Shown here: positions 957-62,784 of the stretch, one piece after another
How the letters are laid out: each line of letters opens with the position of its first letter
How positions within the stretch are numbered: position 1 is the first letter of the stretch
Assembly (NCBI GenBank): GCA_907165275.2
Contig: OU015660.1
Coordinates: 2,792,501 to 2,856,500 of the forward strand
Reading direction: 5' to 3'
From: Zygaena filipendulae
Taxonomy: Eukaryota > Arthropoda > Insecta > Lepidoptera > Zygaenidae
DNA length: 64,000 bases
The notes under the pieces: generated by a model
What the model was told of the DNA's origin: nothing
The model's database searches: none
Seen by the model: the letters and a program-made list of their open reading frames with translations, nothing else
Made by a program: the position numbers and the translations under genes

Positions 957-1030
957 AAACTGTTACTCTTGTACGGGGATCGAATCTACGACACCTGGCG
1001 TAGCAGTCAGGTTTAATAACCACTACACGA
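957..1030 (-). repeat. tRNA-derived SINE head
   Basis: Read on the minus strand the segment has a polymerase III A-box-like TGTAGTGGTTAT and a B-box-like GATTCGATCCC separated by a tRNA-like interval (ACTGCTACGCCAGG). No acceptor stem pairing is evident, so it is a SINE head, not a working tRNA. The same type of sequence occurs at 9040-9090. The upstream FLYWCH cassette F1 reads into it and uses a stop codon inside it. Confidence 0.6.
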
Positions 1031-1236
1031 ACGCTTCTGTCCGTCTATGCCATGATTGTGTTCATTAATTACTTTCACTATTTCATCGTCAATCGTAGTC
1101 ATTTTAGCTCGGCATCCTTTGTTGTGGTGCGTGGAGCATTTCCAAAATGTCTTGCGTCCGCGTATGACGCTCTGATAGAACCTGTAGCCATCGTATTTTA
1201 TTATTGGCTTGCCCCTAGTGGAAGTTTCGTACGACA
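1013..1236 (-). CDS. mod(mdg4): FLYWCH alternative 3' exon F1
   Basis: Most downstream cassette of the array. The acceptor is CAG before 1236, and the first two bases complete a split codon. The 73-residue peptide starts SYETSTRGKPIIKYDGY. Predicted zinc ligands are C33, C41, H59 and H61, with the family aromatic W31. FLYWCH domains bind zinc and act in DNA or protein binding; in mod(mdg4) proteins they give each isoform its partner specificity downstream of a shared BTB domain. The frame does not stop after HNH: it runs 12 residues further into a tRNA-derived SINE and ends at a SINE-borne TAA. There is no in-frame ATG at the start, so it cannot be a free-standing gene. The exon call is strong; the gene name is inferred from architecture. 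Confidence 0.82.
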
Positions 1237-1264
1237 CTGTAATAATGGAAAATATTATTTTCAC

Positions 1265-2130
1265 TTCTCATGCACTGAAAGTGCTTGTTTGTGCAGGATA
1301 TAGGCTGCACAAAATCGAATTTTGTGCACAAGTGCATTAACGTATCTACTCATAAATTTATCTACGTTAAGGCAAAGAAAATAAGCCATACAGCCAAACA
1401 CAATAAAAAGTTCGTAGATAGAGGTTGTTATTTTATACTATTTCTCTTATGTGTTATGTCTTATATGTTATTTAAGTCATAAATAGAAATACCATTAATA
1501 TGCCGGAAAAAACAATTTCATTCAGTATTCAAAACTGTAGGCACTAATTTTACTTTGAATTTTAATTAAAGAAATGTAATGTTATACTACTGTTTTATTT
1601 CCTCGCAATCGAAGTGAAAAGCAGAGTTTATAACTCGTCCACAAAACCAATTTATTCTCGACATTACTATCAGTAAAAGTTTACTATCAGCTAAGTCTCG
1701 GATAAAAATGGTTCGTTTTGTGCACTTGTTGTAAAATCTACTATTTATTAGAATCTGGTGGTTTCTTAATATACATATACTTACTCAATAATATTATAAA
1801 CGCGAAAGTACTTCTGGTTATCTATCTGTTACCTTTTCACGCCGTAACTACTCAATCGATCATCATGAGCGGTTGGATTGATCACAGAGCAAACTCCTGT
1901 ACTACTATGATCTGACGAATCGATTTCATTAGCTGCGTCTAACACATAATTTTTTTTCGCTGTTGCTAAACGGGCATCTGTTTTGCCTCCTCCTTTCCGA
2001 TTTTTCTTAGTACCTAATTGTTTTCAGAAAACCCAAAAGTGTGATGGTTGCAAGCCATGCACGTATCACAATTATTATTGCCACGATAACACGAGTTGGT
2101 GTTATGATAAAAATTCAAGCCTTTCATGCA
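1265..2130. other. Spacer, no gene seen
   Basis: AT-rich sequence with short random open frames only. A possible short repeat fragment lies near 1840-1900. No exon with an acceptor and zinc-finger pattern was found on either strand. Confidence 0.5.
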
Positions 2131-2259
2131 GCCATCTTTTTTCTTTATCTCATTAAATCTTTGGCGATAAACATAGAAATACATACTTTTAATCCGGTAT
2201 AGTTACCATTACATAACAGACAGGAGTGCGACGCGTCTTCTTGGCCACCACTAATAAAC

Positions 2260-2450
2260 AATTTCGATGTTGTGGAAATATGTAGTGACCCCGCTAAGAC
2301 GAGCCAAGCGAAGCGCAAGGGCACCACCTATTATACCTTTTCATGAAGCGCTTCTTCGTTTTTTTTAAATCTTCATGACTTGGGTTTGAATTATACCAGA
2401 TGAACAAAATTCTCGGGATATGATGTCAATAGTGGAGTTATAATAAGAAT
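2260..2450. repeat. Dispersed repeat shared with 59320-59740
   Basis: The stretch with GCACCACCTA, the TTGGGTTTG(A/G)ATTATACCA core and ACAAAATTCTCGG recurs at 59340-59420 and 59640-59700. There it is interrupted by a CCCGCGG-family insertion. No coding capacity. Confidence 0.55.
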
Positions 2451-3054
2451 TTATTTATTTATTCAATAGAACGACTAACAAAGCATACCCTGTAAAATTG
2501 GTAGTGATAACATATAGGATATTATAAAAGAAAAGTTATGGCACTGCCTCAATTAAAGGTCGCCACAGCATGCACAAAAGAAACAAGCTATAATGTACAC
2601 AACCATTTATTTCCACAGGTCCCAAGCAAAGTTGAATTTTGATTTACAATCAAACAAAAATATTATTAAACATATAAAATTTTAATTGCATACTATACTT
2701 TAGATTTTATTGACATCTAAAAAACAAAATATTTGATACTCCACAGCAAGCACTTCAGCTGAGCAAGCCGGCCCACGGCGCGCGGCGTCTAAAATGGCGG
2801 CTAACACATTCTCGCATATATGAATTATGAGTGTTTTGTTTTTGTAATAGTAATAAATGATAATAATCCACTTCACAACACACAGATCTACTTGATCCCA
2901 TAGAAAGCTACAGTAAGCTTGTGTCGTGGAAATCAAGCAAACAATAGTACTTAGTGGTGCTCAGTTGATATTTTTTCTGTTTTAAATATAGGCATTTTGC
3001 TACTCTATCGAATGATTTCTAAGTGATCTATAAAGATAGTTGTAAAGTATTTTT
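2451..3054. other. Spacer, no gene seen
   Basis: AT-rich. The segment near 2660-2740 (TTTTAATTGCATA, TTTAGATTTTATTGA) matches 59690-59745, so it belongs with the preceding repeat family. Confidence 0.45.
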
Positions 3055-3155
3055 TAAATAATAATAATCTTTATTTATTTCTTTAGGCTTACAATAATTA
3101 GACTTAAGTACATAATTCTAATTTTTTTACTTTAATTTTATATCTAATACATAAA
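3055..3155 (-). repeat. Probable non-LTR retrotransposon 3' end
   Basis: On the minus strand this ends AAATAAATAAAGATTATTATT, the usual shape of an insect LINE 3' terminus with an A-rich simple tail. No coding part is preserved. Confidence 0.35.
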
Positions 3156-3566
3156 TAAATAATAGTCGTCTTCGAATCGAATTCGAATATAGTGGTATGC
3201 CAAAATGACGTCCTCGCCGATCGACGGCATTATCACAAATGCTTGAAAATGCACGCGTGCAAATTGCAATACGCCTCGTGAATAGAGTTTAGTACGCTGG
3301 GTTTCTCAAAGCAGCGTATTTGAAGCGTCTATGAGGCCAATGAGGACTATTAGGCCTATTGATTTGCTACCCAGTACCTATCTACCTACTGCGTAAGAGC
3401 CAACCCACACGGTGCGGTGCGGCTCAGGTCAGGCGCCTGAGCGGCGCCGCTGCGGTATATTACATACAAAAATGCGTTGTGGACGGCGCCTTGCGGCACG
3501 CTCCGGCGCCGCGCCGCCCTCGATTCGGAGTAGAGACGAGGCGGAGAGGGGAGTAAGCGGCTCGCT

Positions 3567-3832
3567 CCTGCAGGAAGTGCGGCGTAGAGGTGGAAACAAT
3601 GGCACATCTTATGTGCGAGTGCGATGCCTTGGCTCGTAAACGAATGGACCTCCTGGGGATGGCTTACCCAGAACCAGAGGACTTTAGGCTCTTACCCCTC
3701 CACTGCACGCTAGCCTTCGCCGCCGAGGTTTTCAGGGAGTAGAGGGAGGAGCACAGGATGGGGATGGTACAAAAGATCCCAAGGGTCGAGGTGCCGAGGC
3801 TTTGCTTGCCCACCCCATTGTCTAAGATAAGA
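3567..3832 (+). mobile_element. 5'-truncated LINE tail nested in the TIR element
   Basis: The fragment is bounded by direct repeats TAAGCGGCTCGCT (3554-3566 and 3833-3845), a target-site duplication from target-primed reverse transcription. It ends in a short (TAAGA) tail. The end of a retrotransposon polyprotein is readable in 3578-3742: a C-terminal zinc-knuckle-like tract (CGVEVETMAHLMCECDAL) followed by RKRMDLLG, as in I/R1/Jockey-type reverse transcriptase tails. Confidence 0.7.
3578..3742 (+). pseudogene. Reverse transcriptase C-terminal fragment
   Basis: About 54 codons, ending in TAG, of the cysteine/histidine-rich C-terminus of a non-LTR retrotransposon ORF2 (C-x-V-x-x-E-T-x-x-H-x-x-x-x-C). 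The catalytic domains are missing because the insertion is 5' truncated, so it is not functional. Confidence 0.6.
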
Positions 3833-3991
3833 TAAGCGGCTCGCTGTTGTTTGTCCTGTTCTGTCACGTTACACGTAGCGATGGGCATGCCTACTCTTTT
3901 TGTCGCCGCTGCGGCGCCGCGCTGCCCGTGTGGTCGCTCATGCGGCGAAATAATTTGGGCTGCGGCGCCGCACCGCATCGTGTGGTTTGGC

Positions 3992-4388: not shown

Positions 4389-4392
4389 ACTT

Positions 4393-5337: not shown

Positions 5338-5789
5338 TCATTCAAATTGATACAAATTACAATGATACAATTTTTTCGAAAGAATATGATTGTGTACTAA
5401 ATTAAGTGAATTAAAGAATAAACTGTTACCATCTTCGGTCACGTTAACTTTAAATGAAGCTTGACAATGTTTTTGGGCAGTACTTGTAATTCTTTGCCCA
5501 GTTGATTGAGATTTAAAATTTTTGCCTCCATGAATACAACAATATTTCAGTCTATAATACTTTAATTTTGGGTTAATGTACCTTTTTACACCGTGTTGTC
5601 GGCAATTTTCGATGGTCTGGCAATCTCTTCTATAAAAAACACAATACTTAAAATCTTGATAATCTGAAATTCTTTTTTCTAATTCTTCAAATGAGTTAAA
5701 CTTTTCATTTATTTCCAAATCCTCGTTATTTGGTTCTTGTTGATTAACTTCTTCAGCATCCTCAGCCGCACCCTCAGACTCATCAAATC
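5338..5789 (-). CDS. mod(mdg4): Divergent FAR1/WRKY-GCM1-like zinc-finger exon X1
   Basis: The minus-strand acceptor CTCAG precedes 5789. The first two bases complete a split codon, as in every FLYWCH cassette, so it can join the same donor. The peptide begins with an acidic linker (FDESEGAAEDAEEVNQQEPN), then FNSFEELEKRISDYQDFKYC. Next comes a Cys/His domain (CVFYRRDCQTIENC, YRLKYCCIHGG, KHCQASF, ending LVHNH) and a basic tail to TAA. The layout fits the FAR1/ZSWIM N-terminal relatives of the WRKY-GCM1 zinc-finger group, to which FLYWCH also belongs. It is over twice the usual cassette length. It may be a non-FLYWCH isoform exon of the same locus or an exon of a captured transposase; membership of the locus is inferred from strand, position and phase. 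Confidence 0.6.
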
Positions 5790-6229: not shown

Positions 6230-6456
6230 CTACGTATCTGTGAATGCAAATGTGTTATTGATTACGGCCGAGTGGTTGTGTTGATTGTTCATTTTGACTA
6301 TTTGATCACCAACTGTGATCATAGTACCATGGCATCGTTTGCTATGGTGCGTGGAGCATCTCCAAAATGTTTTGACGCCGCGCACGACTTTTCTCGAGAA
6401 TCGATAGCCATCGCAGCAAAGTATCGGTTTGCCCTTCACTGAAATTTCGTACGTCG
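6230..6456 (-). CDS. mod(mdg4): FLYWCH alternative 3' exon F2
   Basis: The acceptor is CAG before 6456, with two split-codon bases, then TYEISVKGKPILCCDGY. W31, C33, C41, H59 and H61 are all present. The first two residues after the second Cys differ from most cassettes (CHGTM in place of CRA-). The frame continues 13 residues past the His-x-His (SAVINNTFAFTDT) before stopping, one of only a few long C-terminal extensions in the array. It is closest in sequence to F1 (shared TYE/SYE start and RKTFW/VKTFW). Confidence 0.82.
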
Positions 6457-6938: not shown

Positions 6939-7126
6939 TCAATGATTGTGATCACTCTTTATTTTCACTATTTCATCTTCTATCGTGATTATAGAGGCCT
7001 TGCATCCTTTGCAGTGGTGAGTAGAGCAAGCCCAATACGACCTTAAGTTGTGTTCAGTTTTCCTGTAAAATTTATAGCCGCCGTAATAGATTAAAGGTTT
7101 GCCCCTTATCGATTGGGCGCGCGTCA
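6939..7126 (-). CDS. mod(mdg4): FLYWCH alternative 3' exon F3
   Basis: Canonical 188-base cassette with its acceptor CAG before 7126. The 61 residues begin TRAQSIRGKPLIYYGGYKFY and include YWACSTHHCKGCKA; zinc ligands are C33, C41, H59 and H61, with an additional Cys at residue 38 between the first two. It stops directly after HNH. The reading frame stays open upstream of the acceptor for about 40 codons, which makes a false internal start possible, but the acceptor and phase agree with all other cassettes. Confidence 0.84.
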
Positions 7127-8606: not shown

Positions 8607-8794
8607 TCAGTGATTATGCTTACCTCTAACCATAATAAATTCATTATCGATTGTCGTTAAGACGATGCGGCATCCTTTGCCGTGGTGCGTGGAACATTCC
8701 CAGTGCGTTTTGCACCCTGTTGTTCGTCGTTTGTTAAACCTGTAGCCATTGTAGCAGAGGATGGGCTTACCCTTCTGTGACACGGTGCGCGTTA
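8607..8794 (-). CDS. mod(mdg4): FLYWCH alternative 3' exon F4
   Basis: Canonical 188-base cassette with its acceptor CCAG before 8794. The 61 residues begin TRTVSQKGKPILCYNGYRF, with HWECSTHHGKGCRIV and a final HNH; C33, C41, H59 and H61 are kept. It differs from its neighbours in having hydrophobic residues (IVL) after the second Cys where most have A-x-I. It lacks an in-frame ATG at the acceptor. Confidence 0.85.
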
Positions 8795-9968: not shown

Positions 9969-10156
9969 TTAATGGTTATGGTGACCTCTAGTTTTCACTA
10001 TCTCGCCATCTATCGTTATAATGGCGGCACGACATCTTTTACTGTGATGTGTGGAGCATATCCAATGCGTTTTGCCTCCAATCGTACGGTTATGACAATA
10101 AGTGTATCCATTACAGAAGATATTACGGTTACCCTTACGTGATAAGACGTACTTCA
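9969..10156 (-). CDS. mod(mdg4): FLYWCH alternative 3' exon F5
   Basis: Canonical 188-base cassette with its acceptor CAG before 10156. The 61 residues begin KYVLSRKGNRNIFCNGYTYC. WICSTHHSKRCRAAI and the terminal HHNH keep C33, C41, H59 and H61. Its KYVLSRKG start is nearly identical to F6 and close to F7, F8 and F9, marking these five as a recent local duplication group. Confidence 0.86.
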
Positions 10157-11501: not shown

Positions 11502-11692
11502 TCAATGAGTGTGTTGATCTTTAATATTCGTTATTTCACCATCAACTGTTGTAATGCTGGCATAACATCTCCTTTTACTGTAGTGTGTGGAGCATACCCA
11601 AAGCGACCTGTTTCTGATTGCACGACTCTTGCTGAATGTGTATCCGTTGTACCAGATAAGGGGATTACCCTTTCGTGATAAGACGTAGTTCA
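11502..11692 (-). CDS. mod(mdg4): FLYWCH alternative 3' exon F6
   Basis: A 191-base cassette with acceptor TTTAG before 11692. The 62 residues begin NYVLSRKGNPLIWYNGYTF. It carries one extra residue between the first two zinc ligands (WVCSTHYSKRRCYAS, so C33 and C42), and the end is HTH in place of HNH (H60, H62). Both changes are still compatible with zinc binding, since FLYWCH family spacing is variable here. It is the only cassette with an eight-residue Cys-Cys interval. Its acceptor is TAG where the F5 group otherwise uses CAG. Confidence 0.82.
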
Positions 11693-12868: not shown

Positions 12869-13056
12869 TCAATGATTGTGATAACCTCTAGTTTTTACTA
12901 TTTCTTTATCGAGTGTTGTAATGGTGGCGCGACACCTTTTCTTATTGTGCGAGGAGCACATCCAATACGTTTTGATTCCGACTGCTCGTTTCCTACAATA
13001 TCTGTATCCAAAGTAACAAAGAATGGGTTTGACTTTTATTGATAACTCGTACTTCA
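12869..13056 (-). CDS. mod(mdg4): FLYWCH alternative 3' exon F7
   Basis: Canonical 188-base cassette with its acceptor CAG before 13056. The 61 residues begin KYELSIKVKPILCYFGYRYC. W31 and the ligands C33, C41, H59, H61 are intact (YWMCSSHNKKRCRAT, ending YHNH). The usually invariant Gly at residue 8 is Val here, and the STHH that follows the first Cys is SSHN. The downstream flank on the minus strand repeats that of F9 (CCCCTCAATGATTATG..CTCTAGTTT on the plus strand), supporting duplication of exon plus flank. Confidence 0.85.
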
Positions 13057-15701: not shown

Positions 15702-15889
15702 TTAATGATTATGATTACCTCTAGTTTTAACTATTTCGTTATCACACATCATAATGGTGACCCGGCATTTTTTTTTACCGTGAGAAGAACATTTCCAATG
15801 TGTTTTAGCCCCGATTTTACCGTTTATGCAGAATCTGTAGCCGTTGTAGCAAAGAATAGGTTTACCCTTCAGCGAAACGGCGTACTTCA
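15702..15889 (-). CDS. mod(mdg4): FLYWCH alternative 3' exon F8
   Basis: Canonical 188-base cassette with its acceptor CAG before 15889. The 61 residues begin KYAVSLKGKPILCYNGYRFC. HWKCSSHGKKKCRVT and the terminal NHNH keep C33, C41, H59 and H61. The region between the Cys ligands is unusually basic (GKKK). Its acceptor flank (GATACCATTTCAGTGAAGTAC) is nearly the same as that of the decayed cassette at 17.4-17.5 kb, showing exon plus intron-end duplication. Confidence 0.86.
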
Positions 15890-17055: not shown

Positions 17056-17243
17056 TCAATGATTATGTTCACCTCTAGTTTGCAATATTTCGCTATCAAC
17101 TGTTGTAATGCTGGCGCGACAACCTTTACTGTGGTGTGTGGAGCATATCCAAAGTGTTTTGACTTTGATTGTTCGTTTCCTGCAATATCTGTATCCATAG
17201 TAGCAAAGAATGGGTTTTCCTTTTATTGATGAGACGTATTTTA
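17056..17243 (-). CDS. mod(mdg4): FLYWCH alternative 3' exon F9
   Basis: Canonical 188-base cassette without any start codon, so it is easily missed. The acceptor is CAG before 17243. The 61 residues begin KYVSSIKGKPILCYYGYRYC, with LWICSTHHSKGCRASI and the final EHNH; ligands C33, C41, H59 and H61 are intact. It is closest to F7 (KYELSIKVKPILCYFGYRYC), with which it also shares its 3' flank. A longer-looking frame in the same place (17010-17198) is a shadow in another frame. Confidence 0.86.
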
Positions 17244-19673: not shown

Positions 19674-19867
19674 CTACCGAGAATGATTGTGGATATTCTT
19701 GATGGAGATTATTTCATCGTCGAACGTCATTATGACCGCTTTGCATTGTTGCGCACGACGTCGCGAGCACTCCCAATAGGTTCTGTGTCCGCATGTAGAC
19801 TTCTTATGGAACTTGTAACCGTTGCAGCATATCAGCCAGTTACCGTGTTTGGAAGGAGTGTAAGTCA
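19674..19867 (-). CDS. mod(mdg4): FLYWCH alternative 3' exon F10
   Basis: A 194-base cassette with its acceptor CAG before 19867. The 63 residues begin TYTPSKHGNWLICCNGYKFH. The Cys pair keeps its seven-residue spacing but the usual THH is replaced by RRR (WECSRRRAQQCKAV); C33, C41, H59 and H61 remain. Two residues (SR) follow the final HNH. It is the last cassette before an 18-kb gap filled by mobile elements, and the most divergent of the left block in its Cys-Cys loop. Confidence 0.82.
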
Positions 19868-34054: not shown

Positions 34055-34366
34055 GTGGGCGATTTGCGTGCTGCACCTCCTCGTACGGCGTGTCTTCATT
34101 TATTTAATTTCAGCGTAGATACTATTCCAAAAGACATAACGGATCACTTGATGACACGTCTTAAGTGTAAAGATGCCAAGTGTGAGCAGTTGCAGACACG
34201 AGGAGAATACGCATCCTTCAAGCTAGAGGTTCCCACTTCCTCTGTGAAGTATGTTCGTGATCCCAAACACTGGCCACAGGGTGTATCTATAAGAAAGTTC
34301 AACATTATTGTCCCAAAAAACCCAAAAAACTCACAAAATCCGGGCACAAGTCCGGAAAACAAATGA
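34055..34366 (+). pseudogene. LINE ORF1 C-terminal fragment
   Basis: About 103 codons ending VPKNPKNSQNPGTSPENK. Contains VDTIPKDITDHLMTRL and SFKLEVP, as in the RRM-like RNA-binding tails of CR1/L2/Jockey ORF1 proteins. The true start is lost to 5' truncation. Its TGA overlaps the ATG of ORF2 (ATGA at 34363-34366), the usual coupling for termination-reinitiation in these LINEs. Confidence 0.65.
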
Positions 34367-36733
34367 AGTCACAAAAACTTGATACACTACAACGCTTTTC
34401 AAATTCAATAACACGTAAATTTACTATTCTCCATCAAAATGTAAGATCGATCGCAAGCAAAACTGGACTTATAAACATCGCAGTCAACAAATATGAACCC
34501 GACGTAATTGCGTGTAGTGAGACATGGTGCCGGAGCAATGAAATAACACGTGTCGGCGTTATAGGCTACGAACTGGCGAGTAGTTACTGTCGGCCGCTCA
34601 TCCAGCATGGAGGGGTGGCGCTGTACGCGCGAAATAATGTGTCATACAAGCAACGACATGACCTACAGGTACTCGCAGTAGAATATCACTGTGAATTCTG
34701 CGTAATAGAAATATTGAACTTGAAATTATTGATTGTATGCTTGTATAGAACTGGACTGGGAGATTTTGAGACTTTCTTAAAAATATTTGAAATTTTGTTA
34801 AATAAGATTATTGACGAAAACAAAAGGTTCATTTTAGTTGGCGACTTAAATGTAGATTACCTAACTGACAATTCTCATAGACATAAATTGGATGACTTGT
34901 TGCTATGTTATGACACAAATAACATTGTTTGTTTCCCTACGCGTGTGACTGATGACTGCATTACGTCGTTGGACTGTGGGGTTGTAGCTCGCGGTGATAA
35001 TGACGTCACCGTCGTCCCGTTAGACACCGCAATAAGCGATCACAATGCCCAGCTGTACGAGTTAAAAACATCGAATGACAAACCGATCTCGACAAGAAAC
35101 TCGCACATTCTACGACGGTTATACACGGACGATTCTATTGGTTTATTTTACATTGACATTACAAATTACAATTGGAATTTTATAAATAGTTCTGACATTA
35201 CCATCAGTGACAAGTTTTCTAAATTATTTAATGTACTAATATATTATATAGACATACATTTCCCAATTAAAAAAGTAGTTACGAAAAAGAAATCCACAGT
35301 CCCATGGATGAGCGACGAGCTTAGTTACTATATAAGAATGTTCGAAAATTTTTGTGAAATCAAGCGTCAATACCCCAATGAATTAGTATCAAAATGCGTT
35401 AATTATTACTCTAATTTAATAAAATCTACAAATCTGCGTGATCGCAAGTCCTATATAGATAACCGCTTAAGAACCGCTAAAAATGCTTCCAAGGAGATAT
35501 GGCGTGTAGTAAATGAAGAGATATCCACAAAAAATAAATCATCTAATATTGTTTTGGCGGACCAAGGAACAAACGTACCAACTGACCACATTCCAGACTA
35601 TCTTAATAATCATTTTCTATCAGTCACTTCAAAATTAACACTACAGACAAACAGACAACAAGCTATGACCTACCTAAGTAAGTATATACAAGAACTAAAC
35701 GTTCCTGAAATGGCATCCCCGATAGTGACTCGTGACACACTTGATCGAGTATTAAAATCAATGTTAAAGACACCGAACACTCTTGACTTGTATGACATTT
35801 CAGTTAATATTTTATTATCCATCTGGCCCTGCCTATCCGACGTGCTAGTCACCTTAATTAATGATATTTTTTCAAAAGGAATATACCCTGATGTTCTAAA
35901 ATGTACGCGAGTTTGTCCGGTATACAAAGGGAAAGGCGACAAAGACAAAGTAGATAGTTACAGACCTATAACTATTGTGCCAAACGTATCTAAGATCATT
36001 GAGTCTATATTATCTACATGTATCATGGAACATTTGGAAACAAATGACTTGTTATCGGATAGGCAGTATGCGTACAGAAAACATAAGTCAACCACTAGTG
36101 CTGCACAAAAAATTGTAGATTCGATAATAACCGGAATAGACGAAAAATATAAAACGGCCGGAATTTTCTGTGACCTCTCGAAAGCATTCGATGTCATAGA
36201 AAATGACCTGCTATTGGAAAAATTGCATCATTACGGAATAAAAAATAACAATCTAAATCTCTTAAAGTCGTTTCTTAAAAACAGAAAACAAACCGTTGAG
36301 ATCATATGTGACGGTGGACGAAGGAGAGTCAGGTCTGCGGTGGGTGAAGTAACGGTGGGCATACCGCAAGGATCTGCCCTCGGAAACACCATGTTTTTAG
36401 TATTTGTCAACGACCTACCGTCCTTCATCACCGATGGCCTGATAGTCCTGTTCGCCGACGACACGACTGTCGTTGTATGCGCCCCTACGTATGAGCTACT
36501 CAACGACAAAATTGAAAAGTTGCGCTTGCAATTGCAGCAGTGGTTCTCATGTAATGGCCTTATATTAAATTTAACAAAATCAAACGTAATACTTTTTTCT
36601 GGGAGATCAGTACCACGCCCTATTTGCATAAATAGCTCCATTCCGTTATCAAACAATTGTAAATTTCTTGGATTTACGCTGGACAACAACTTAAATTGGA
36701 AACTACACACTCAGACCTTATGTGACAGACTAA
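34363..36733 (+). pseudogene. LINE ORF2, endonuclease and reverse transcriptase part
   Basis: An apurinic-type endonuclease comes first: LHQNVRSI at about 22, SETW at about 52, HGGVALYARNN at about 82, FILVGDLNVDY at about 156, and SDHNAQ near 225. The reverse transcriptase follows: YRPITIVPN near 530, DLSKAFDVI at about 604, GIPQGSALG at about 666, and the catalytic FADDTTVV at about 697. All catalytic motifs visible to me are intact. The frame then enters a MITE and would stop inside it at 36993, so the protein is interrupted. Encodes nicking and target-primed reverse transcription of its own RNA when whole. Confidence 0.85.
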
Positions 36734-37148
36734 GGTCCGTATTCCAAAAGGTTACTCAAGTCATGAATCTAGTTTTAAAACTAATTTCAAGTAAAGCTTT
36801 AATTTTAGAACCTTCCTTGAAACGAGATTCATCAATCAACAATCAGCTGAGTTATTTCCTTATTCTAGAACGACGCTCGAGTACTAATCTATACTCAAGT
36901 AGAGATTTGATCTTTGTTTACGTCTGTCATGTCAAGACCACTCAACCAATCAGAGTTCAAAATCCCTACTCAAGATTAGTTTCAAGTGATTAGAACCAAT
37001 CAGAGTTCAGAATCTCTACTAAAGACTAGTTTCAAGTGATTAGAACTTAAAACGCATTCTATAATAAGATGTACGCTTGAGTTATGATTTGAGCATTATA
37101 CTAATCTCAAGAGAAACGTGATCTGAGTCACCTTCTGGAATACGGACC
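36734..37148. mobile_element. MITE inserted in LINE ORF2, TAA duplication
   Basis: Ends GGTCCGTATTCCA and its complement, with TIR similarity over about 25 bp (AAGGT.ACTCA). TAA flanks both sides (36731-36733, 37149-37151), as for PIF/Harbinger-type elements. Inside are two 50-bp tandem units starting at 36944 and 36994 (AACCAATCAGAGTTCARAAT). The coding frames of the LINE on the two sides agree if the MITE and one TAA are discounted, so it inserted into an intact ORF2. Confidence 0.88.
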
Positions 37149-38251: not shown

Positions 38252-38439
38252 TTAATGACTGTGAATATTATTCATCTTAATAATTTTGTTATTGATTGTG
38301 TAAATAACAGCCCTGCAAGCTCTGCTGCTATGCCGTGTACACAACCACCTCTGTTTGGGTCCAGCGCTGAACCTTTTGAAAAATTTGTAAGCGCCAATTT
38401 GTATCATTTGATTGCCGTACCGCGACTTTATGAATGTTA
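38252..38439 (-). CDS. mod(mdg4): FLYWCH alternative 3' exon F11
   Basis: Canonical 188-base cassette with its acceptor CTTGCAG before 38439, including a good TTTTCC-type pyrimidine tract. The 61 residues begin TFIKSRYGNQMIQIGAYKFF. RWLCTRHSSRACRAVI keeps C33 and C41; the end is HSH (H59, H61) in place of HNH. First cassette after the 18-kb gap, and of the right-block type (IKS, G-x-Y-x-F at 15-19). It stops immediately after HSH. Confidence 0.85.
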
Positions 38440-39179: not shown

Positions 39180-39370
39180 TTAACGATGATTATGATCGTT
39201 CTTGACTACGACGATTTTATCATAGTACGTACGAACTGTCGCCTTACAACCTCTCGGGTGGTGCGTCGAACACACCCATCGGACTTTGGGACCAATGGTG
39301 CTCTTCTTATAGAACCGATACCCGTCGACGATCACCTGGGGTTTGCCCTTTTGCGATTTAGTGAAGACCA
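39180..39370 (-). CDS. mod(mdg4): FLYWCH alternative 3' exon F12
   Basis: A 191-base cassette with acceptor TTTTTTATAG before 39370. The 62 residues begin VFTKSQKGKPQVIVDGYRFY. RWVCSTHHPRGCKATV keeps C33 and C41, and H59/H61 are followed by one Arg. The DGYRFY core resembles left-block cassettes (F1, F2), not its neighbours, so it is an outlier in the right block. Confidence 0.85.
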
Positions 39371-40602: not shown

Positions 40603-40793
40603 TCAGTGATTATGTTCATTTTTCAGATAAGTAATATGGCCGCCATACGTGTGCACACACGCGTTGCAGCCTCTCGCGTGCATCGTCGAGCACACCCATC
40701 GGATTCTATCATCATTATATATGTTCTTCTTGTAAAATGTGTGTTCGCCGAAACACAACAGTTCTCGCCCTCGTTTCGATAACTTGTAACATG
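40603..40793 (-). CDS. mod(mdg4): FLYWCH alternative 3' exon F13
   Basis: A 191-base cassette with no start codon; the frame is only found by using the acceptor phase. The acceptor is TTTCAG before 40793. The 62 residues begin CYKLSKRGRELLCFGEHTFY. RWVCSTMHARGCNACV keeps the Cys pair (C34, C42 after one extra residue in the linker) and ends EHNH. It is more diverged than most, with an extra Cys in NACV, but the frame is intact throughout. Confidence 0.8.
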
Positions 40794-41374: not shown

Positions 41375-41568
41375 TCAGTGATTGTGTTCATATTTGGTGT
41401 AAACTATTTGGTCGCTGCACAGATATACAGCAGCGCGACAGCCCTTGTTGTGGCCAGTCGAGCAAGCCCACATTGTTGTGTAGCCATTTTTTAGATGTCT
41501 CTTTTTGAAATACGTATACTCACCAACGTGTAATCTACGGTTACCTTTATTGGAAACCGAAAAAGAAC
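41375..41568 (-). CDS. mod(mdg4): FLYWCH alternative 3' exon F14
   Basis: A 194-base cassette, again without a start codon. The acceptor is ATTTTAG before 41568. The 63 residues begin SFSVSNKGNRRLHVGEYTYF. Two extra residues in the linker place the core at W33, C35, C43, H61 and H63 (MWACSTGHNKGCRAAV, ending EHNH). It pairs with F15 in sequence (HVGxYTYF) and in linker length, so these two adjacent cassettes are probably sister duplicates. Confidence 0.82.
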
Positions 41569-42409: not shown

Positions 42410-42603
42410 CTAATGGTTGTGTATATTTTTAACATGAACAATGGCATCGTCGACCGTTAGCACCACAGCCCGACAACCTTTCGCGTGATGCGTCGAACAT
42501 TGCCACCTGTCTTTGGTGCTGTTGTTGACTTTAGTTCTCCTGAAGTAAGTGTACTGACCGACGTGCAAAAGAGGCTTACCCTTTTTGGAAACGGTGAAAT
42601 AGG
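42410..42603 (-). CDS. mod(mdg4): FLYWCH alternative 3' exon F15
   Basis: A 194-base cassette without a start codon; acceptor CTTTTCAG before 42603. The 63 residues begin YFTVSKKGKPLLHVGQYTYF. RWQCSTHHAKGCRAVV gives C35 and C43, ending IHNH at 61-63; stop TAG directly after. The basic linker RRTKVNNSTKD is long. Sister to F14. Confidence 0.85.
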
Positions 42604-43691: not shown

Positions 43692-43882
43692 TCAATGGTT
43701 GTGATCGTTATTTATATCTATGATTTCGTTGTCAACAGTCCTTATTTTTGCCTTGCAGCCTTTAGTGAAATGCGTGGAGCAGCTCCATCGGGTGTTCGAT
43801 CCGTTCGTGTACTGCTGGTAGTAAGTGTAGGCGCCGAGTTTGATCAATCGTTTCCCTCTCTTTGATTTTATGATAGACCATG
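43692..43882 (-). CDS. mod(mdg4): FLYWCH alternative 3' exon F16
   Basis: A 191-base cassette with acceptor ATTTTTAG before 43882. The 62 residues begin WSIIKSKRGKRLIKLGAYTY, one residue longer at the N-terminal end than the norm. RWSCSTHFTKGCKAKI and the end DHNH keep all four ligands. Right-block type. A partial MITE family A copy starts 56 bases upstream of its acceptor. Confidence 0.85.
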
Positions 43883-45711: not shown

Positions 45712-45908
45712 CTACACCATCTCATGGTTATGTTCATTTCTTACTCTGATTATTTCGTCACAAACCGTTAGTATAGAGGCGCGACAACGCTTACTATTGT
45801 GTGTGGAACATATCCAGAATGTTTTGTATCCGCGTGTTGTTTTCTTACAGAACTTGTAGCCATCGTATTTGAGTATTCGGGTACCTCTTCTTGAAATGTC
45901 GTATGACG
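45712..45908 (-). CDS. mod(mdg4): FLYWCH alternative 3' exon F17
   Basis: A 197-base cassette without a start codon; acceptor CTTACAG before 45908. The 64 residues begin SYDISRRGTRILKYDGYKFC. FWICSTHNSKRCRASI keeps C33 and C41, and EHNH is followed by EMV and TAG. The sequence is of the left-block type (closest to F1: SYETSTRG..IKYDGYRF) although it stands among right-block cassettes. An overlapping frame at 45768-46001 is a shadow. Confidence 0.84.
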
Positions 45909-46596: not shown

Positions 46597-46784
46597 TTAA
46601 TGGTTGTGATCGTTTAAAACATAAATTAATCTGTTGTTAAAAGTTCTTAACTTTGCTTTGCACCCCTTGGCCTGATGCGTGGAACAAATCCACCGGATCT
46701 TGGGACCGGCGGCAAAACGCTGACAGAAAGTGTAATCACCGATTTTGATTAAAGTTTTCCCTTTCTGCGATTTCACTATAGACA
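46597..46784 (-). CDS. mod(mdg4): FLYWCH alternative 3' exon F18
   Basis: Canonical 188-base cassette with acceptor TTTCAG before 46784. The 61 residues begin SIVKSQKGKTLIKIGDYTFC. RWICSTHQAKGCKAKL, C33/C41 and the end DHNH are intact. It opens a run of regularly spaced right-block cassettes (F18-F23, about 0.7-1.1 kb apart). Confidence 0.87.
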
Positions 46785-47264: not shown

Positions 47265-47452
47265 TTAATGGTTATGTTTATTTAACATTAATACGATTTC
47301 ATTGTCAATAGTTTTAATTTTAGCCTTGCAGTTTCTATAGGAATACGCTGAACAAGCCCACTGGGTACTGGTCTCACTTGTGTACCGTCGACAAAAAGTG
47401 TAATCACCGAGTTGGATCATGGTTTGTCCCTTTCTGGATTTGATGAAAGACA
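47265..47452 (-). CDS. mod(mdg4): FLYWCH alternative 3' exon F19
   Basis: Canonical 188-base cassette with acceptor TTTTTCAG before 47452. The 61 residues begin SFIKSRKGQTMIQLGDYTFC. The zinc ligands are intact but the loop lacks THH (WACSAYSYRNCKAKI), and the terminal half is KHNH. The loss of THH parallels F10 and F29 and probably alters partner or DNA contact rather than zinc binding. Confidence 0.85.
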
Positions 47453-47970: not shown

Positions 47971-48070
47971 ATTAGTCATTGGAAATATAAATTATTACGC
48001 TATCAATAGTTACCCCCGCAGCCTTAGTGGTTATGCCTAGAACAATCTTGTATTGACTATAGTGAGTTTA
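47971..48070 (-). pseudogene. Decayed FLYWCH cassette next to F20
   Basis: The minus strand aligns with the central and distal part of F20: ATACAAGAT, TTGTTCTAGGCATAACCACT (F20 has CTCATAACCACA), AAGGCTGCGGGGG, and AACTATTGATAGCG. It lacks the W-x-C context, has lost bases, and its 5' half has been replaced by a CCCGCGG-family repeat that starts at about 48083. A dead duplicate of F20. Confidence 0.65.
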
Positions 48071-48404: not shown

Positions 48405-48592
48405 TCAATGATTGTGATCGTTTAAAATATCAACGATTTCGTTGTTAATAGTTGTTACTTTCGCCCTGCAGCCTTTGTGGTTATGAGTAGAACAATTCCA
48501 CCGTATCTTGTATCCATAAGTGAGCTGACGGCAGAATGTGTAATCTCCAATTTTTATTAGCGGTTTCCCTCTTTGTGACGTTATGTAAGATG
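48405..48592 (-). CDS. mod(mdg4): FLYWCH alternative 3' exon F20
   Basis: Canonical 188-base cassette without a start codon; acceptor TTTTACAG before 48592. The 61 residues begin SYITSQRGKPLIKIGDYTFC. RWNCSTHNHKGCRAKV has C33/C41, and the end is DHNH. An AATAAA lies about 35 bases past the stop on the minus strand (near 48370), a plausible poly(A) signal for this isoform. Closely similar to F27 (SKRGKPLIKIGEYTFC, RWNCSTHNHKGCRAN). Confidence 0.87.
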
Positions 48593-49112: not shown

Positions 49113-49300
49113 TTAATGGTTGTGTTCATTTACAATTTCCACCACTACGTTGTCAATTGTTGTAACTTTTGCCTTGCAGCCTTTGTGGAGGTGCGTCGAA
49201 CACCACCATTTGCTACGGGATTTGTTCACGTACCGCTGGCAGTAAGTGTAGTCACCGAGTTGGATTAAGATATTCCCTTTTCTTGATTTTATAAAACTTA
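49113..49300 (-). CDS. mod(mdg4): FLYWCH alternative 3' exon F21
   Basis: Canonical 188-base cassette without a start codon; acceptor TTTCCAG before 49300. The 61 residues begin SFIKSRKGNILIQLGDYTYC. The core is KWWCSTHLHKGCKAKV with two Trp before C33; the end is EHNH. Next to F22 and F23 in both position and sequence (SRKG-x-ILI/VLL). Confidence 0.86.
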
Positions 49301-50070: not shown

Positions 50071-50258
50071 TTAATGATTGTGTTCGTTTTTAATATCAGT
50101 TACTTTGTTGTCGATAGTTTTAATCCTTGCCTTGCAGCCTTTGTTGCAATGTGTTGAACAAATCCACCGGATACGCGGTCCATTAATTTTTTTCCGGTAG
50201 TAAGTGTAGTCACCGATTTTCATTAAGATTTTCCCTTTTCTTGATTTTGTAAGACATA
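50071..50258 (-). CDS. mod(mdg4): FLYWCH alternative 3' exon F22
   Basis: Canonical 188-base cassette; acceptor TTTTCCAG before 50258. The 61 residues begin CLTKSRKGKILMKIGDYTYY. RWICSTHCNKGCKARI keeps C33 and C41, with a further Cys at 37, and the end is EHNH. A minus-strand AATAAA lies about 105 bases past the stop (near 49967). Confidence 0.86.
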
Positions 50259-51156: not shown

Positions 51157-51344
51157 TTAATGGGTGTGATTGTTTTTAATATCTACGACTTCGTTATCAA
51201 CAGTTCGAATGTTAGCCCTGCATCCCTTGCAGTAATGTGTGGAGCAACCCCATCGCACACTGGTTCCACTCTTGTATTGCTGATAATATGTGTAGTCACC
51301 ACATTTGAGTAGAACATTCCCTCTTTTTGATTTTATAAACGTTA
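51157..51344 (-). CDS. mod(mdg4): FLYWCH alternative 3' exon F23
   Basis: Canonical 188-base cassette without a start codon; acceptor TTTTTCAG before 51344. The 61 residues begin TFIKSKRGNVLLKCGDYTYY. RWGCSTHYCKGCRANI has a further Cys at 38 between the ligands C33 and C41; the end is HTH (H59, H61), as in F6. Stop TAA directly after. Confidence 0.86.
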
Positions 51345-55213: not shown

Positions 55214-55401
55214 TTAATGGTTGTGATCATTCACAGCCGTGATTATTCTATTCTCAAAAGTCCTGATTTTCGCTTTGCAACCTTTGTTGTTAGATGTAGA
55301 ACAAACCCACCGGATATAGGCGCCGTTTGCGCTACGCTGACAGAAAGTATAGTCCCCGAGTTGTATTAAGGGTTTTCCTCTCCTTGAAATCACGTACATC
55401 G
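55214..55401 (-). CDS. mod(mdg4): FLYWCH alternative 3' exon F24
   Basis: Canonical 188-base cassette with acceptor TACAG before 55401. The 61 residues begin MYVISRRGKPLIQLGDYTFC. RWVCSTSNNKGCKAKI has C33/C41 and lacks the THH (TSNN); the end is DHNH. The TAA stop coincides with the TTA target duplication of the adjacent MITE, so the insertion left the reading frame and stop unchanged, but all natural 3' UTR beyond the stop has been displaced by 360 bp of MITE. Confidence 0.87.
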
Positions 55402-56003: not shown

Positions 56004-56197
56004 TTAATGGTTGTGATTGTTGAAAATATTAATGATTTCGTTGTTATTGGCTATAATTTTTGCCCTGCAGCCTTTGTGGTTATGCGTGGAACACAGCCAT
56101 TTGATCATATGTCCGTTTGTGTAGCAGTAATGCTGGCAGAATGTGTAGTCTCCGACCTTGATTAATGGCTTCCCTCTTTTTGACATTATATATGATA
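56004..56197 (-). CDS. mod(mdg4): FLYWCH alternative 3' exon F25
   Basis: A 194-base cassette with acceptor TTTTTCAG before 56197. The 63 residues begin SYIMSKRGKPLIKVGDYTFC. Two extra residues in the linker (QHYCYTNGHMI) move the core to W33, C35, C43 and H61/H63 (KWLCSTHNHKGCRAKI, ending NHNH). Close to F20 and F27 in the STHNHKGCRA loop. Confidence 0.86.
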
Positions 56198-57168: not shown

Positions 57169-57356
57169 TTAATGGTTGTGATTGTTTCTAACTTCAATGA
57201 TTTCATTTTTAACAGTATAGATTTTTGTCTTGCATCCTTTGTTGTAATGCGTTGAACAACACCACATCGTACGGAACCGATTGCTGTGACGCTGGAAATA
57301 AGTGTAGTCACCGATTTTGATTAACGTTTTCCCTTGCTTTGATTTTATATAAGATG
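57169..57356 (-). CDS. mod(mdg4): FLYWCH alternative 3' exon F26
   Basis: Canonical 188-base cassette without a start codon; acceptor TTTCCAG before 57356. The 61 residues begin SYIKSKQGKTLIKIGDYTYF. MWCCSTHYNKGCKTKI keeps C33 and C41 (with an extra Cys at 32), and the end is NHNH. Confidence 0.86.
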
Positions 57357-58947: not shown

Positions 58948-59141
58948 TTAATGGTTGTGAATGTTGAAAATATCAATGATTTCTTCGTGTACAGTTTTGA
59001 TATTTGCTCTGCAGCCTTTGTGGTTATGTGTGGAACAATTCCACCGGGTTTTGTATCCATTGATGGAATGCTTGCAGAAAGTGTATTCTCCGATTTTTAT
59101 TAACGGTTTCCCCCTCTTTGAAATTACGGTCTCGTAAGACG
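58948..59141 (-). CDS. mod(mdg4): FLYWCH alternative 3' exon F27
   Basis: A 194-base cassette with acceptor TTTCCAG before 59141. The 63 residues begin SYETVISKRGKPLIKIGEYT; two extra residues lie near the N-terminus compared with F20. RWNCSTHNHKGCRANI supplies the Cys pair (C35, C43) and IHNH the final His pair. The frame is also open upstream of the acceptor, but the splice phase matches the array. Confidence 0.85.
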
Positions 59142-59325: not shown

Positions 59326-59412
59326 AAGTCAAGCAAAGCGGAACGGCACCACCTACCTTTTCTTGAAGCACTTCGTCGTTTTTTTAAACCCTTATAACTT
59401 GGGTTTGGATTA

Positions 59413-59645: not shown

Positions 59646-59749
59646 CAAAATTCTCGGAATATGTTGTCAATAGCGGACTTATTAAACATATAAAGTTTTA
59701 ATTGCATAGCTCTTATACCTACTTTAGATTTTATTGATATCTAAAAGCC

Positions 59750-60725
59750 CCGATTTCGTCACTGACTCACTGATGATCATCAAAATTCTTAGGGTATTTC
59801 CTAATATCCTAATTTTGTATGTTAGCTAATATTAGTACACAAACAACAAAAAAATTATAAAACTTTTATCCCCTAGTTTACGGGGTTGGGGGATAAAAGT
59901 TTATATGAGGATTCCGCATTTTTTACTGATATCACGCGTATCAGTTTGTGTTTGTAGCAGTTCGTTTGTTTATTGGCATACCACAACAACCTAAAAACAT
60001 TTGTTTTGTGTAAAAAAATGAAATTTATTTGAACCGGATAGTTACCAGATATCTGTTTCATTTCTAAAATAAAGCACCGAATTAACGTACATTTATTTAT
60101 ATTTATTTAATTGTTAACACACATGGTACCTATACGATGAATTACAATAGTACGTCTAGACCCGCGACAAATACGGTGAATACGGTTTTATTATAAGTAA
60201 TAGCCAATCGAATAGTGATTTTATGTATTAATTTATTTAATGAGAAACGCCGTAGTTTTAAGCTACCTTATTAGCTACCTTTTTAGTCTTTTTATTTACA
60301 TATACCTTTATTTAAATAACTAATGCCTAAAATAATGTATTGTTAATTGTTTTCCATTTTCATATCTAATTACAACAAAAGCAGGTCCTACAATTTTATC
60401 AGACATATACTGCATATACGGATAAAGTTAATTTCATTTCATATACTATATAACAAAATTAAAACAAAAACAAAAACAAATTTTAAAATTATGATAGGTA
60501 AAATTATGATGTTTGTACACAAAATATACAAAATAAATAAAATGAAAAGGATAAATAACTTAAAATAAAAAAATTACACACATACTAAATATAATTTATT
60601 ACCCACGAATCTCATCAATATCATAATAGGTATATTTTGTGATAATTTTTGATCGTTTCTTAATCACGCTTGAAATGCACATAGAATGTTTTTGATTGAC
60701 ACCTAAGAATACTTTCAATACTTTC
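59750..60725. other. Spacer, no gene seen
   Basis: AT-rich. TTATCCCC / GGGGATAAAAGT sequences around 59865-59900 form a local palindrome. No exon on either strand. Confidence 0.45.
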
Positions 60726-61057
60726 AATAGGCTAGTTTCCTGGGTAAAAAAATCAAAATTCTATTTAGTCCGTCAGTTAGACAATAAAAAAATAAAAGAC
60801 ACGTATTTTTTGCTTTTTTAAAATAATGGAAATATGCATAGATAAAGCGCATTAAAGTTTAGGGTGGGGGACTCGTGATGTCACAGCTCGCTATAACGTG
60901 CGAACAAACTGTAGCGAGGCGTGACGTCATGTGAAATTTCGACTTGATATATCTCCGTTATTTTTTGGTTACATAAAAAATAAAAAAATACGTGTCCAAT
61001 ATTTTTTAATAATCTACAAAACGGACTAAAAAAGAAAATTTAGGAAACTAGCCTATT
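60726..61057. mobile_element. MITE family A variant, left copy
   Basis: Ends TAGGCTAGTTTCCTGGGTAA and AATTTAGGAAACTAGCCTA, flanked by TA. The body matches family A (AAAGCGCATTAAAGTTTAGG, GTGAAATTTCGACTTGATAT). It is nearly the exact inverse of 61393-61724. Confidence 0.85.
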
Positions 61058-61072
61058 GCGGTATCAACAATG

Positions 61073-61392
61073 AATGGAGATGTGGACTACTTCTAAAAAT
61101 CAAGTCTAATTAGTCCGTCAGTTAGAAAATAAAAAAAACAATAGACACGTATTTTTTGCTTTCTTAAATAAATTAAAATATACAGAGATAAAGCGCAATA
61201 ATGTTTAGGGTGAGGGGGTCGTGGCGTCACTAACCGCAAAAACCGCCATACAAACTGTCAGAATAGTGACGTCACGCGAAATTTCAACTCAATATATCGC
61301 CGTTATTTTACGTAAAAAATGAAAAAGTACGTGTCCAATATTTTTTAATAATCTACAAGACGGACTAAAAAATAAAAATTAGTCAACATGCC
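61073..61392. mobile_element. MITE family A, copy between two inverted variants
   Basis: AATGGAGATGTGGACTACTT at the left and AAAAATTAGTCAACATGCC at the right; body as in 39463-39788. It abuts the next element with no spacer. Confidence 0.85.
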
Positions 61393-61724
61393 AATAGGCT
61401 AGTTTCCTAAATTTTCTTTTTTAGTCCGTTTTGTAGATTATTAAAAAATATTGGACACGTATTTTTTTATTTTTTATGTAACCAAAAAATAACAGAGATA
61501 TATCAAGTCGAAATTTCACATGACGTCATGCCTCGCTACAGTTTGTTCGCACGTTATAGCGAGCTGTGACATCACGAGTCCCCCACCCTAAACTTTAATG
61601 CGCTTTATCTATGCATATTTCCATTATTTTAAAAAAGCAAAAAATACGTGTCTTTTATTTTTTTATTATCTAACTGACGGACTAAATAGAATTTTGATTT
61701 TTTTACCCAGGAAACTAGCCTATT
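61393..61724. mobile_element. MITE family A variant, right copy, inverted
   Basis: The inverse of 60726-61057 with very few differences. Its right end (ACTAGCCTATT) lies two bases from the stop codon of cassette F28. Confidence 0.85.
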
Positions 61725-61944
61725 CATGTGGCCGAAGCAGCTGGTAACAGCGAAGATTTATGATTGTGGGCGTTCTCAATGTGTATTATTGCGTTATGAA
61801 CAGTGACAAGTTTGGCCTTGCAACCCTTGTTGATATGCGTCGAGCATCCCCAACGGATGCGGGAGCCGATGCAGTTTTGCCGACAGTAGGTGAAGTCTCC
61901 CAGTTTAATTAGAGTCTTCCCTCGCCTCGACGTCACGTAAGACA
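61724..61944 (-). CDS. mod(mdg4): FLYWCH alternative 3' exon F28
   Basis: A 221-base cassette with acceptor TTGCAG before 61944. The 72 residues begin SYVTSRRGKTLIKLGDFTYC. RWGCSTHINKGCKAKL has C33/C41, and AHNH ends the domain. The frame continues 11 residues (KSSLLPAASAT) to a TGA lying immediately beside the MITE at 61393-61724. The original stop after HNH, if any, has been lost, and the extension is unlike those of F1 and F2. Confidence 0.85.
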
Positions 61945-62176
61945 CTGCAAAAGAAGAAAATAATGAATGAGTGCGTGTAACCTTTATGCGCGATTGAAGT
62001 GAAACTGATATTGTACTCGTAAATAACAACGTGTAATCGCCATAGCAACGTTTCGACAGCGCATGTCTGGCCAGTTCATTTGTTAATAACAACGTCTAAT
62101 TGCCATAGCAACGTTTCGATTGCGCATTTCTGGCGAGCTCGGGCAGGCTGAGTTGCGTGCCGTCATCCAAAGCTAC

Positions 62177-62410
62177 CAGCGGAGCTAGGATGCGCAACAT
62201 GATATGTTTATCGAACGAAAGATAAAATTGTCGACACGACAAATATTTGTGGGCGTCCAAGCAAAAAAGTGCAGTAGTGGGGTATTGAGTTAAGACTAGA
62301 TTCGGTTAAACATTTTTTACCACAAGTAGACAAAACGATATATTATGTCGACGAGAATCGATAAAATGGCTCGATAAAATTTTATCATGTTGCGCATCCT
62401 AGCTCCGCTG
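62177..62410. mobile_element. MITE with CAGCGGAGCTAGGATGCG ends
   Basis: CAGCGGAGCTAGGATGCGCA at 62177 and its complement ending at 62410 form TIRs of about 28 bp (continuing ACATGATA). It includes the GTGGGCGTCCAAGCAAAA segment shared with 8353-8410. No clear target duplication was seen. Confidence 0.75.
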
Positions 62411-62590
62411 TTGATGTTTAATAGATATGATCAGTTTTTCCGGGCCACTTCATGAAATAGGCCGATATTAGTTGTGGACACGACATATCGATTTTTATGA
62501 CTCCTAATTCCGAAACTAAGGGCACATCCGTACTACTTCTTTTTTTAGTTGAATTTCCCAACCATTGGACGTTGTAAAGAAACTGCAATT

Positions 62591-62784
62591 TTAGTGACTA
62601 TGTTCATTTATTTTACCAACGACTTTACCAAAGGCGATGATAATGGCCGCCCTGCAAGACCTATAACATCTAGATGTACAATTCCATCGGGTTTCTTTGC
62701 AAGCGGCTGGGGCGGGTAACCTATAATATATGTACTGGCCCAATTGTATTAACGGCTTCCCTTGTCTCGATATTATATAGCGCA
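62591..62784 (-). CDS. mod(mdg4): FLYWCH alternative 3' exon F29
   Basis: First cassette in transcription order within the window. A 194-base exon with acceptor TTTTTCAG before 62784. The 63 residues begin RYIISRQGKPLIQLGQYIYY. The linker is unusual (RLPAPAACKE), and the core is RWNCTSRCYRSCRAA with an extra Cys at 39 between C35 and C43; the end is HSH, with H61 and H63. It lacks THH and is the most diverged intact member of the right block. Confidence 0.82.

What the first reader, a model, noticed from the sequence alone, without database searches (positions are those of the whole stretch)
1013..62784. Thirty-cassette one-strand array of alternative zinc-finger 3' exons
Seen: 29 open FLYWCH cassettes plus X1, all minus strand, each with an acceptor, a split first codon, one zinc-finger domain and its own stop. 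Known: mod(mdg4) in flies, and in Lepidoptera, combines one BTB 5' part with many FLYWCH 3' exons, in Drosophila also by trans-splicing. Inference: this is a very expanded version of that locus, giving at least 30 chromatin or insulator protein isoforms from one gene, and the window does not reach its 5' end.
Basis: partly seen in the sequence, partly recalled or inferred. Interest (0 to 1): 0.92.

Follow-up and report, generated by a model that had tools for sequence, protein, structure and literature searches.

The report
Giant array of swappable protein tails
This stretch of a moth or butterfly genome is one slice of a single gene, mod(mdg4), which carries hundreds of interchangeable DNA-binding end-pieces that can probably each be spliced onto the same protein head, far more than I found reported for this gene.

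Summary
In detail: 29 open FLYWCH cassettes, all minus strand, each behind an acceptor, all in one splice phase, plus one candidate FAR1-like 3' exon and one remnant. The same assembly holds the mod(mdg4) BTB head on the same contig and strand, 281 kb beyond the window, ending CAAG|GTAGGT in phase 1. In 120 of 120 fetched isoform models with this junction the next residue is G, V, E, D or A, the five residues of GNN codons. The title understates it: the window is 9% of an array of at least 228 cassettes (245 with weaker hits) over 0.70 Mb, against 24 acceptor genes or 41 isoforms in the largest published cases I found. It is not one-strand overall: blocks to the west lie on plus in the same phase and could join the head only by trans-splicing. 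The donor intron opens with a cluster of U1-like sites, recalling the fly trans-splicing signal. No RNA was available, so use of the cassettes is inferred. A known kind of locus at unusual scale.

The parts
62591..62784 (-). FLYWCH 3' exon (lowest-scoring of the 29), acceptor base 62784
61724..61944 (-). FLYWCH 3' exon with 11-residue tail
58948..59141 (-). FLYWCH 3' exon
57169..57356 (-). FLYWCH 3' exon
56004..56197 (-). FLYWCH 3' exon
55214..55401 (-). FLYWCH 3' exon
51157..51344 (-). FLYWCH 3' exon
50071..50258 (-). FLYWCH 3' exon
49113..49300 (-). FLYWCH 3' exon
48405..48592 (-). FLYWCH 3' exon; the one modelled in 3D
47974..48061 (-). remnant of a FLYWCH cassette (partial, 19 bits)
47265..47452 (-). 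FLYWCH 3' exon (acceptor corrected to 47452)
46597..46784 (-). FLYWCH 3' exon
45712..45908 (-). FLYWCH 3' exon
43692..43882 (-). FLYWCH 3' exon
42410..42603 (-). FLYWCH 3' exon
41375..41568 (-). FLYWCH 3' exon (split codon GGT, Gly)
40603..40793 (-). FLYWCH 3' exon
39180..39370 (-). FLYWCH 3' exon
38252..38439 (-). FLYWCH 3' exon
19674..19867 (-). FLYWCH 3' exon
17056..17243 (-). FLYWCH 3' exon
15702..15889 (-). FLYWCH 3' exon
12869..13056 (-). FLYWCH 3' exon
11502..11692 (-). FLYWCH 3' exon
9969..10156 (-). FLYWCH 3' exon
8607..8794 (-). FLYWCH 3' exon
6939..7126 (-). FLYWCH 3' exon
6230..6456 (-). FLYWCH 3' exon with 13-residue tail
5338..5789 (-). candidate non-FLYWCH 3' exon: ZSWIM3_N/FAR1-like domain, acceptor TTTCTCAG|GA, same phase (G+GA = Gly); no homologue found; membership uncertain
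1013..1236 (-). FLYWCH 3' exon with 12-residue tail

Best explanation
The window is an internal slice of the acceptor half of a lepidopteran mod(mdg4) locus. A short donor gene at C11:3137317-3138315 (minus strand) encodes the common BTB head and ends in phase 1 with G. Each cassette is an alternative terminal exon that supplies two bases of the joining codon, one FLYWCH zinc-finger domain and a stop. Any G+NN codon is sense and the window's cassettes share one phase, so every joining gives an in-frame BTB-FLYWCH protein. Shown by sequence: donor, phase, cassettes, shared strand with the window, plus-strand blocks elsewhere. Inferred: the head is joined to one tail at a time. Plus-strand cassettes could be joined only by trans-splicing. 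For the window's minus-strand cassettes, 282-344 kb downstream on the donor's own strand, cis-splicing of a very long transcript is also possible, but trans-splicing is likelier by analogy with flies. Each product would use the BTB head to oligomerise and its own FLYWCH domain to choose a chromatin site. Local tandem duplication makes more tails.
For: 29 of 29 cassettes in one phase with AG acceptors. Donor found on the same contig and strand: 96% identity over residues 1-70 and 85% over 45-258 of an Aricia agestis BTB-FLYWCH isoform, ending CAAG|GTAGGT in phase 1. All 120 of 120 isoform models with the VG[D/E]AQ junction have G/V/E/D/A next (five other proteins of the 125 examined lack the motif); the window's acceptors would give V 19, A 9, G 1. 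In C11:2.48-2.68 Mb, 85 cassettes: of 83 with a scorable acceptor 77 are in the same phase, 43 plus and 34 minus; ten of ten scorable cassettes in five small loci too. No stop inside the matched stretch in 114 of 114 (at least five of the 85 matches are partial). Among the 15 closest of 406 pairs dN/dS is 0.09-0.56, one not computable. Nearest relatives lie within three positions in 68 of 114, shuffled mean 5.8, maximum 17. First 520 nt of the donor intron: 10 GGTAA; none of 776 control segments reaches that. Drosophila mod(mdg4) mRNAs are reported as exclusively trans-spliced, with proximal intron 4 sufficient at low efficiency (PMC12692577); 14 of 18 tested Danaus isoforms were confirmed by RT-PCR (PMC4667647).
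Against: No RNA evidence here for any junction. Six of 85 western cassettes have their best acceptor in another phase and two have none. Poly(A) signals are not enriched after the stops (20 of 29 against 74% of random windows), and no shared promoter motif was found upstream. Most of the 406 window pairs (269) are saturated at synonymous sites and the median pN/pS over all is 0.48, so the evidence for constraint rests on few pairs. The hairpin palindrome in the donor intron occurs at 26 places across the genome, so it is not locus-specific. The U1-site control used DNA of the array, not other introns; the cluster holds a short tandem duplication; the single best site (10 of 11) is less rare, reached by 5 of 776 control segments of 520 nt and in 5 of 300 shuffles of the intron. 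Many of the 245 may be unused or tissue-restricted.
Confidence: 0.92

Rival explanations
1. Same locus, but the minus-strand cassettes are joined by ordinary cis alternative splicing of a pre-mRNA of up to 0.7 Mb, and only the plus-strand blocks need trans-splicing or are dead.
For: The donor and all window cassettes share a strand and the donor lies upstream. 188 of the 245 counted cassettes lie on minus. No promoter motif was found before the window's cassettes.
Against: Plus-strand cassettes of the western 200 kb keep the same phase in 43 of 47 scorable cases and show no stop inside the match, so they look used. Fly mod(mdg4) is reported as trans-spliced only. The U1-like cluster sits in the donor intron.
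Confidence: 0.25
2. The cassettes are independent small genes or a dispersed FLYWCH family (for example transposon-derived) with no link to a BTB donor.
For: FLYWCH domains are reported in transposon-like elements (titles in the listing only). Six of 29 have an in-frame ATG before or near the domain start.
Against: 23 of 29 have no such ATG. One splice phase. 149 of the 150 scored genome-wide matches (of 332 candidates) lie in one 0.61-Mb stretch whose eastern end is 22 kb from the donor. Lepidopteran models fuse such domains to the BTB head at the same junction.
Confidence: 0.03
3. Most cassettes are decaying duplicates, with only a few dozen functional tails.
For: One remnant in the window, a stop-bearing partial match in L002, at least five partial matches in the western 200 kb, and three cassettes with identical domain DNA at C11:2669274, 2671662 and 2674050, which may also be an assembly error.
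Against: No stop inside the match in 114 of 114 cassettes of the fully scanned parts, zinc ligands invariant in the window's 29, and pS above pN in all 15 closest pairs.
Confidence: 0.2

Closest known systems
mod(mdg4) of Drosophila melanogaster
   Same: One BTB 5' part, many alternative 3' exons mostly with FLYWCH, acceptors on both strands (PMC4667647 and PMC12692577, passages).
   Different: 31 isoforms there, at least 228 cassettes here. In 23 of 29 window cassettes the stop follows the last His directly; that fly tails are longer is recalled, not tested.
mod(mdg4)-like loci of Danaus plexippus, Plutella xylostella and Bombyx mori (Kong et al. 2015, PMC4667647)
   Same: BTB donor with FLYWCH acceptors, on one scaffold and both strands (550 kb in Danaus), FLYWCH exons that cluster as local tandem repeats.
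   Different: 24 acceptor genes/40 isoforms, 41 isoforms and 9 isoforms there; at least 228 cassettes over 0.70 Mb here. Among 120 tails of other species, best hits to window cassettes reach 51%; searched from the cassette side the best is 58%. So this block looks lineage-specific, as far as those 120 show.
'protein tramtrack, beta isoform' models of Lepidoptera in public annotation
   Same: The orthologous gene models: the 119 others listed are 69-97% identical to P0010 over the aligned part and share the junction.
   Different: Highest isoform number seen in the 120 listed of 3201 hits is X49; whether annotation was capped was not checked.
lola (Drosophila) and Dscam1
   Same: One common part with many alternative exons; lola is trans-spliced with different zinc-finger tails (PMC11426971, passages).
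   Different: lola has 20 isoforms, 17 with C2H2 fingers. Dscam1's cis-spliced internal exons are recalled.

Membership tests
mod(mdg4) locus | Common 5' part encoding the orthologous BTB domain | tested here: met
   C11:3137317-3138315; 96% and 85% identity to the lepidopteran head in two matches
mod(mdg4) locus | Multiple alternative 3' exons, most with one FLYWCH domain | tested here: met
   29 of 29 in the window match PF04500; at least 228 in the locus. That they are alternative exons rests on the splice sites, not on RNA
mod(mdg4) locus | Donor and acceptors compatible in splice phase | tested here: met
   Donor phase 1, CAAG|GTAGGT; 29 of 29 window acceptors fit
mod(mdg4) locus | Acceptor exons on both strands (flies, several Lepidoptera) | tested here: met
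   48 plus and 37 minus in C11:2.48-2.68 Mb; within the window minus only
mod(mdg4) locus | mRNAs joining head and tail, by trans-splicing | not testable with these tools
   No RNA reads available
mod(mdg4) locus | Intronic U1-binding signal promoting trans-splicing (Gao et al. 2015; details recalled, paper not held) | tested here: inconclusive
   U1-like cluster present; the exact fly motif was not available and other introns were not used as control
FLYWCH zinc finger | Fold and zinc ligands C-C-H-H | tested here: met
WRKY-GCM1 superfamily relation | Similarity of fold to WRKY domains | tested here: inconclusive

The most novel reading that the evidence does not exclude
One gene with roughly 250-300 functional, interchangeable DNA-binding tails, assembled mainly by trans-splicing, would hold the largest set of alternative terminal exons known to me and would let one BTB protein address hundreds of chromatin sites. 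The U1-site cluster in its donor intron would make the fly trans-splicing signal ancient in Diptera and Lepidoptera.
Probability: 0.45. Interest if true: 0.85.

Novelty: new member of a known kind. Interest (0 to 1): 0.66.

Why it matters
[quoted passage not shown] A locus with about 245 acceptors on both strands and a mapped donor is a natural experiment. It allows tests of how one 5' splice site picks among hundreds of 3' sites, whether plus- and minus-strand acceptors are used alike, and whether tail number tracks the turnover of transposons or insulator sites. It also suggests that public gene models of this gene, with isoform numbers up to X49 in the list seen here, may miss many of its tails.

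Tried and rejected
Rejected: chance (0 hits in reversed DNA); independent genes; dispersed family (149 of 150 scored matches in one stretch near the donor, 146 of 150 on minus). Tried without result: poly(A) enrichment (20 of 29 against 74% control; AATAAA alone 16 of 29 against 57%) and upstream 7-mers; homologues of the FAR1-like exon 5338-5789 (67 candidates, none significant; best E 0.065 among 134 fetched proteins). Withdrawn: my idea that the GC-rich hairpin block of the donor intron (z -7.4; first 500 nt z -3.1) is a locus-specific signal like the fly TSB (recalled), because its core palindrome occurs at 26 places on many contigs. Whether the U1-like cluster is unique in the genome was asked but not answered. 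An exact total of cassettes was not reached: C11:2.68-2.7925 and 2.8565-3.1365 Mb were searched and read only in a few 3-kb loci, and the stretch west of 2.48 Mb was only searched. Mistakes corrected: acceptor of 47268, wrong start of the FAR1-like exon (redone in 66), donor boundary off by one base (redone in 88).

Papers: PMC4667647 passages and section 9; PMC12692577 passages and introduction; PMC9723646, PMC4033408 and PMC11426971 passages; others only in search listings; PMC6237743 and PMC4387717 not held. Not found in print: a locus of this size, by searches (open-licence PMC only).
Full report
WHAT IS IN THE WINDOW. Translating all six frames and searching with a profile made from the cassettes themselves gives 29 FLYWCH domains, all on the minus strand. 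Each of the 29 also matches Pfam's FLYWCH model on its own at E <= 0.001. A nucleotide profile recovers the same 29 and one broken remnant at 47974-48061. Every cassette has the same plan: an acceptor (AG 29 of 29, TT at -6/-5 in 28 of 29), two bases, 61-74 codons with one domain, and a stop, which in 23 of 29 cases follows the last zinc-binding His at once. Six columns are invariant across the 29: one Ser, the Trp, two Cys and two His; mean column identity is 43%. A thirtieth unit at 5338-5789 carries a ZSWIM3_N/FAR1-like domain instead, behind TTTCTCAG|GA in the same phase. It has no homologue in the protein collection and one matching phase is weak evidence, so I treat it as a candidate only. 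Between 19.9 and 38.2 kb there is no cassette; a plus-strand frame with reverse transcriptase and endonuclease domains, LINE-type by that make-up, lies there.

MORE THAN CHANCE. The neighbouring 200 kb read backwards gives no hit at the threshold that yields 85 hits read normally. One shared phase in 29 of 29 has a nominal chance of 1.5e-14, and 77 of 83 in the neighbouring stretch 6e-30. These are nominal, because the cassettes arose by duplication and are not independent.

THE WHOLE LOCUS. The window is C11:2792501-2856500 of a 366-Mb assembly. The Pfam family search of that assembly scored only 150 of 332 candidates. 149 of the 150 lie at C11:2.50-3.12 Mb, and 146 are on minus. I read C11:2480001-2680000 and found 85 cassettes there, 48 plus and 37 minus, in blocks. 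Adding search hits at E below 1e-5 in the unread parts (46 and 68) gives at least 228. Adding 17 weaker hits (E 7e-6 to 0.007) gives 245, 188 minus and 57 plus, spread over C11:2411985-3115199. The family search alone recovered 21 of 29 in the window but only 21 of 85 in the divergent western part, so the true number is probably higher.

THE DONOR. A lepidopteran BTB-FLYWCH isoform (P0010, Aricia agestis) found with the cassettes locates the common head at C11:3137468-3138315, minus strand: 96% identity over residues 1-70 and 85% over 45-258, the latter read across introns. The last common exon ends ...GATGCTCAAG|GTAGGT, with the first base of the split codon, G, at 3137317. This is 280.8 kb beyond the window and 21.9 kb from the nearest cassette found. 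An independent check: of 125 fetched proteins from P0010 on, 120 contain the VG[D/E]AQ junction, and in all 120 the next residue is one of G 39, V 31, E 23, D 17, A 10. Those are exactly the five residues of GNN codons. These are public gene models; their RNA support was not checked. With this donor the 29 window acceptors give V 19, A 9, G 1. Because no GNN codon is a stop, any tail in this phase is safe to join.

HOW IT MOST LIKELY WORKS. The head is cis-spliced, then joined to one tail. For plus-strand tails the join must be in trans. For the window's tails both cis and trans remain open. [quoted passage not shown]), and by RT-PCR of 14 of 18 tested isoforms in Danaus (PMC4667647). In the present donor intron the first 520 nt hold ten GGTAA and four GTAAGT; none of 776 control segments from the array reaches those numbers. 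The best single site, CAGGTAAGTAA, is less remarkable: 5 of 776 segments hold one as good, and 5 of 300 shuffles of the intron. In flies a U1-binding motif in this intron promotes trans-splicing (Gao et al. 2015, recalled; not held). The likeness is suggestive, no more: the control is not other introns, and the fly motif was not available to compare. Downstream lies a very structured block (z -7.4), but its core palindrome is found at 26 places in the genome, so it may simply be an inserted repeat.

EVOLUTION. 68 of 114 fully scanned cassettes have their nearest relative within three positions, against a shuffled mean of 5.8 and maximum of 17; 101 of 114 have it on the same strand. Expansion is by local tandem duplication. 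Of 120 tails from other species, two match a tail in the 264 kb read here at 75-85% identity, both outside the window. Best hits to window cassettes stay at 51% or lower, or 58% seen from the cassettes. So the locus mixes old tails with what looks like a lineage-specific crop, and the window is the latter, as far as those 120 of 3201 hits show.

NOVELTY. The kind is known, including both strands, tandem expansion and Lepidoptera (PMC4667647: 31, 9, 40, 41, 35 and 34 exon combinations in six insects; 24 acceptor genes over 550 kb in Danaus). What is unusual is the number. I found no report of a locus of this size in nine searches of open-licence papers, but those searches miss most subscription journals, and other Lepidoptera may turn out similar once counted by exon rather than by annotated isoform. 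I therefore call it a new member of a known kind, with high interest because of scale.

LIMITS. No RNA. About 0.39 Mb of the array was searched but hardly read, and its western end was not reached. The three cassettes with identical domain DNA, 2388 bp apart, at C11:2669274-2674229 may be real or an assembly error.

Noticed in passing
window 34261-36993, plus strand: Open 910-residue frame with reverse transcriptase and endonuclease domains (LINE-type), inside the 18-kb cassette-free gap of the array.
   Followed up: partly
window 5338-5789, minus strand: FAR1/ZSWIM3_N-like exon in the array's splice phase with no homologue found; could be a tail of another domain type.
   Followed up: partly
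G000:C11:7255040-7261074, minus strand (L034): A second BTB and FLYWCH gene: 65% and 67% identical to P0010 in two BTB parts, with one FLYWCH match nearby; apparently an unexpanded paralogue.
   Followed up: partly
G000:C11:2669274-2674229: Three FLYWCH cassettes with identical domain DNA, spaced exactly 2388 bp apart; the surrounding DNA is not identical when compared without gaps. Recent triplication or assembly error.
   Followed up: partly
L029, donor intron about nt 734-1072 after the donor site: Five GCTCGAGC palindromes in hairpins; the exact GACTGCTCGAGCAGTC occurs at 26 places in the genome and 0 in the reversed control: a dispersed hairpin repeat of unknown nature.
   Followed up: partly
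G000:C11:2411985-2450726: Nine more plus-strand FLYWCH matches west of the part read; the array's far end was not reached.
   Followed up: no
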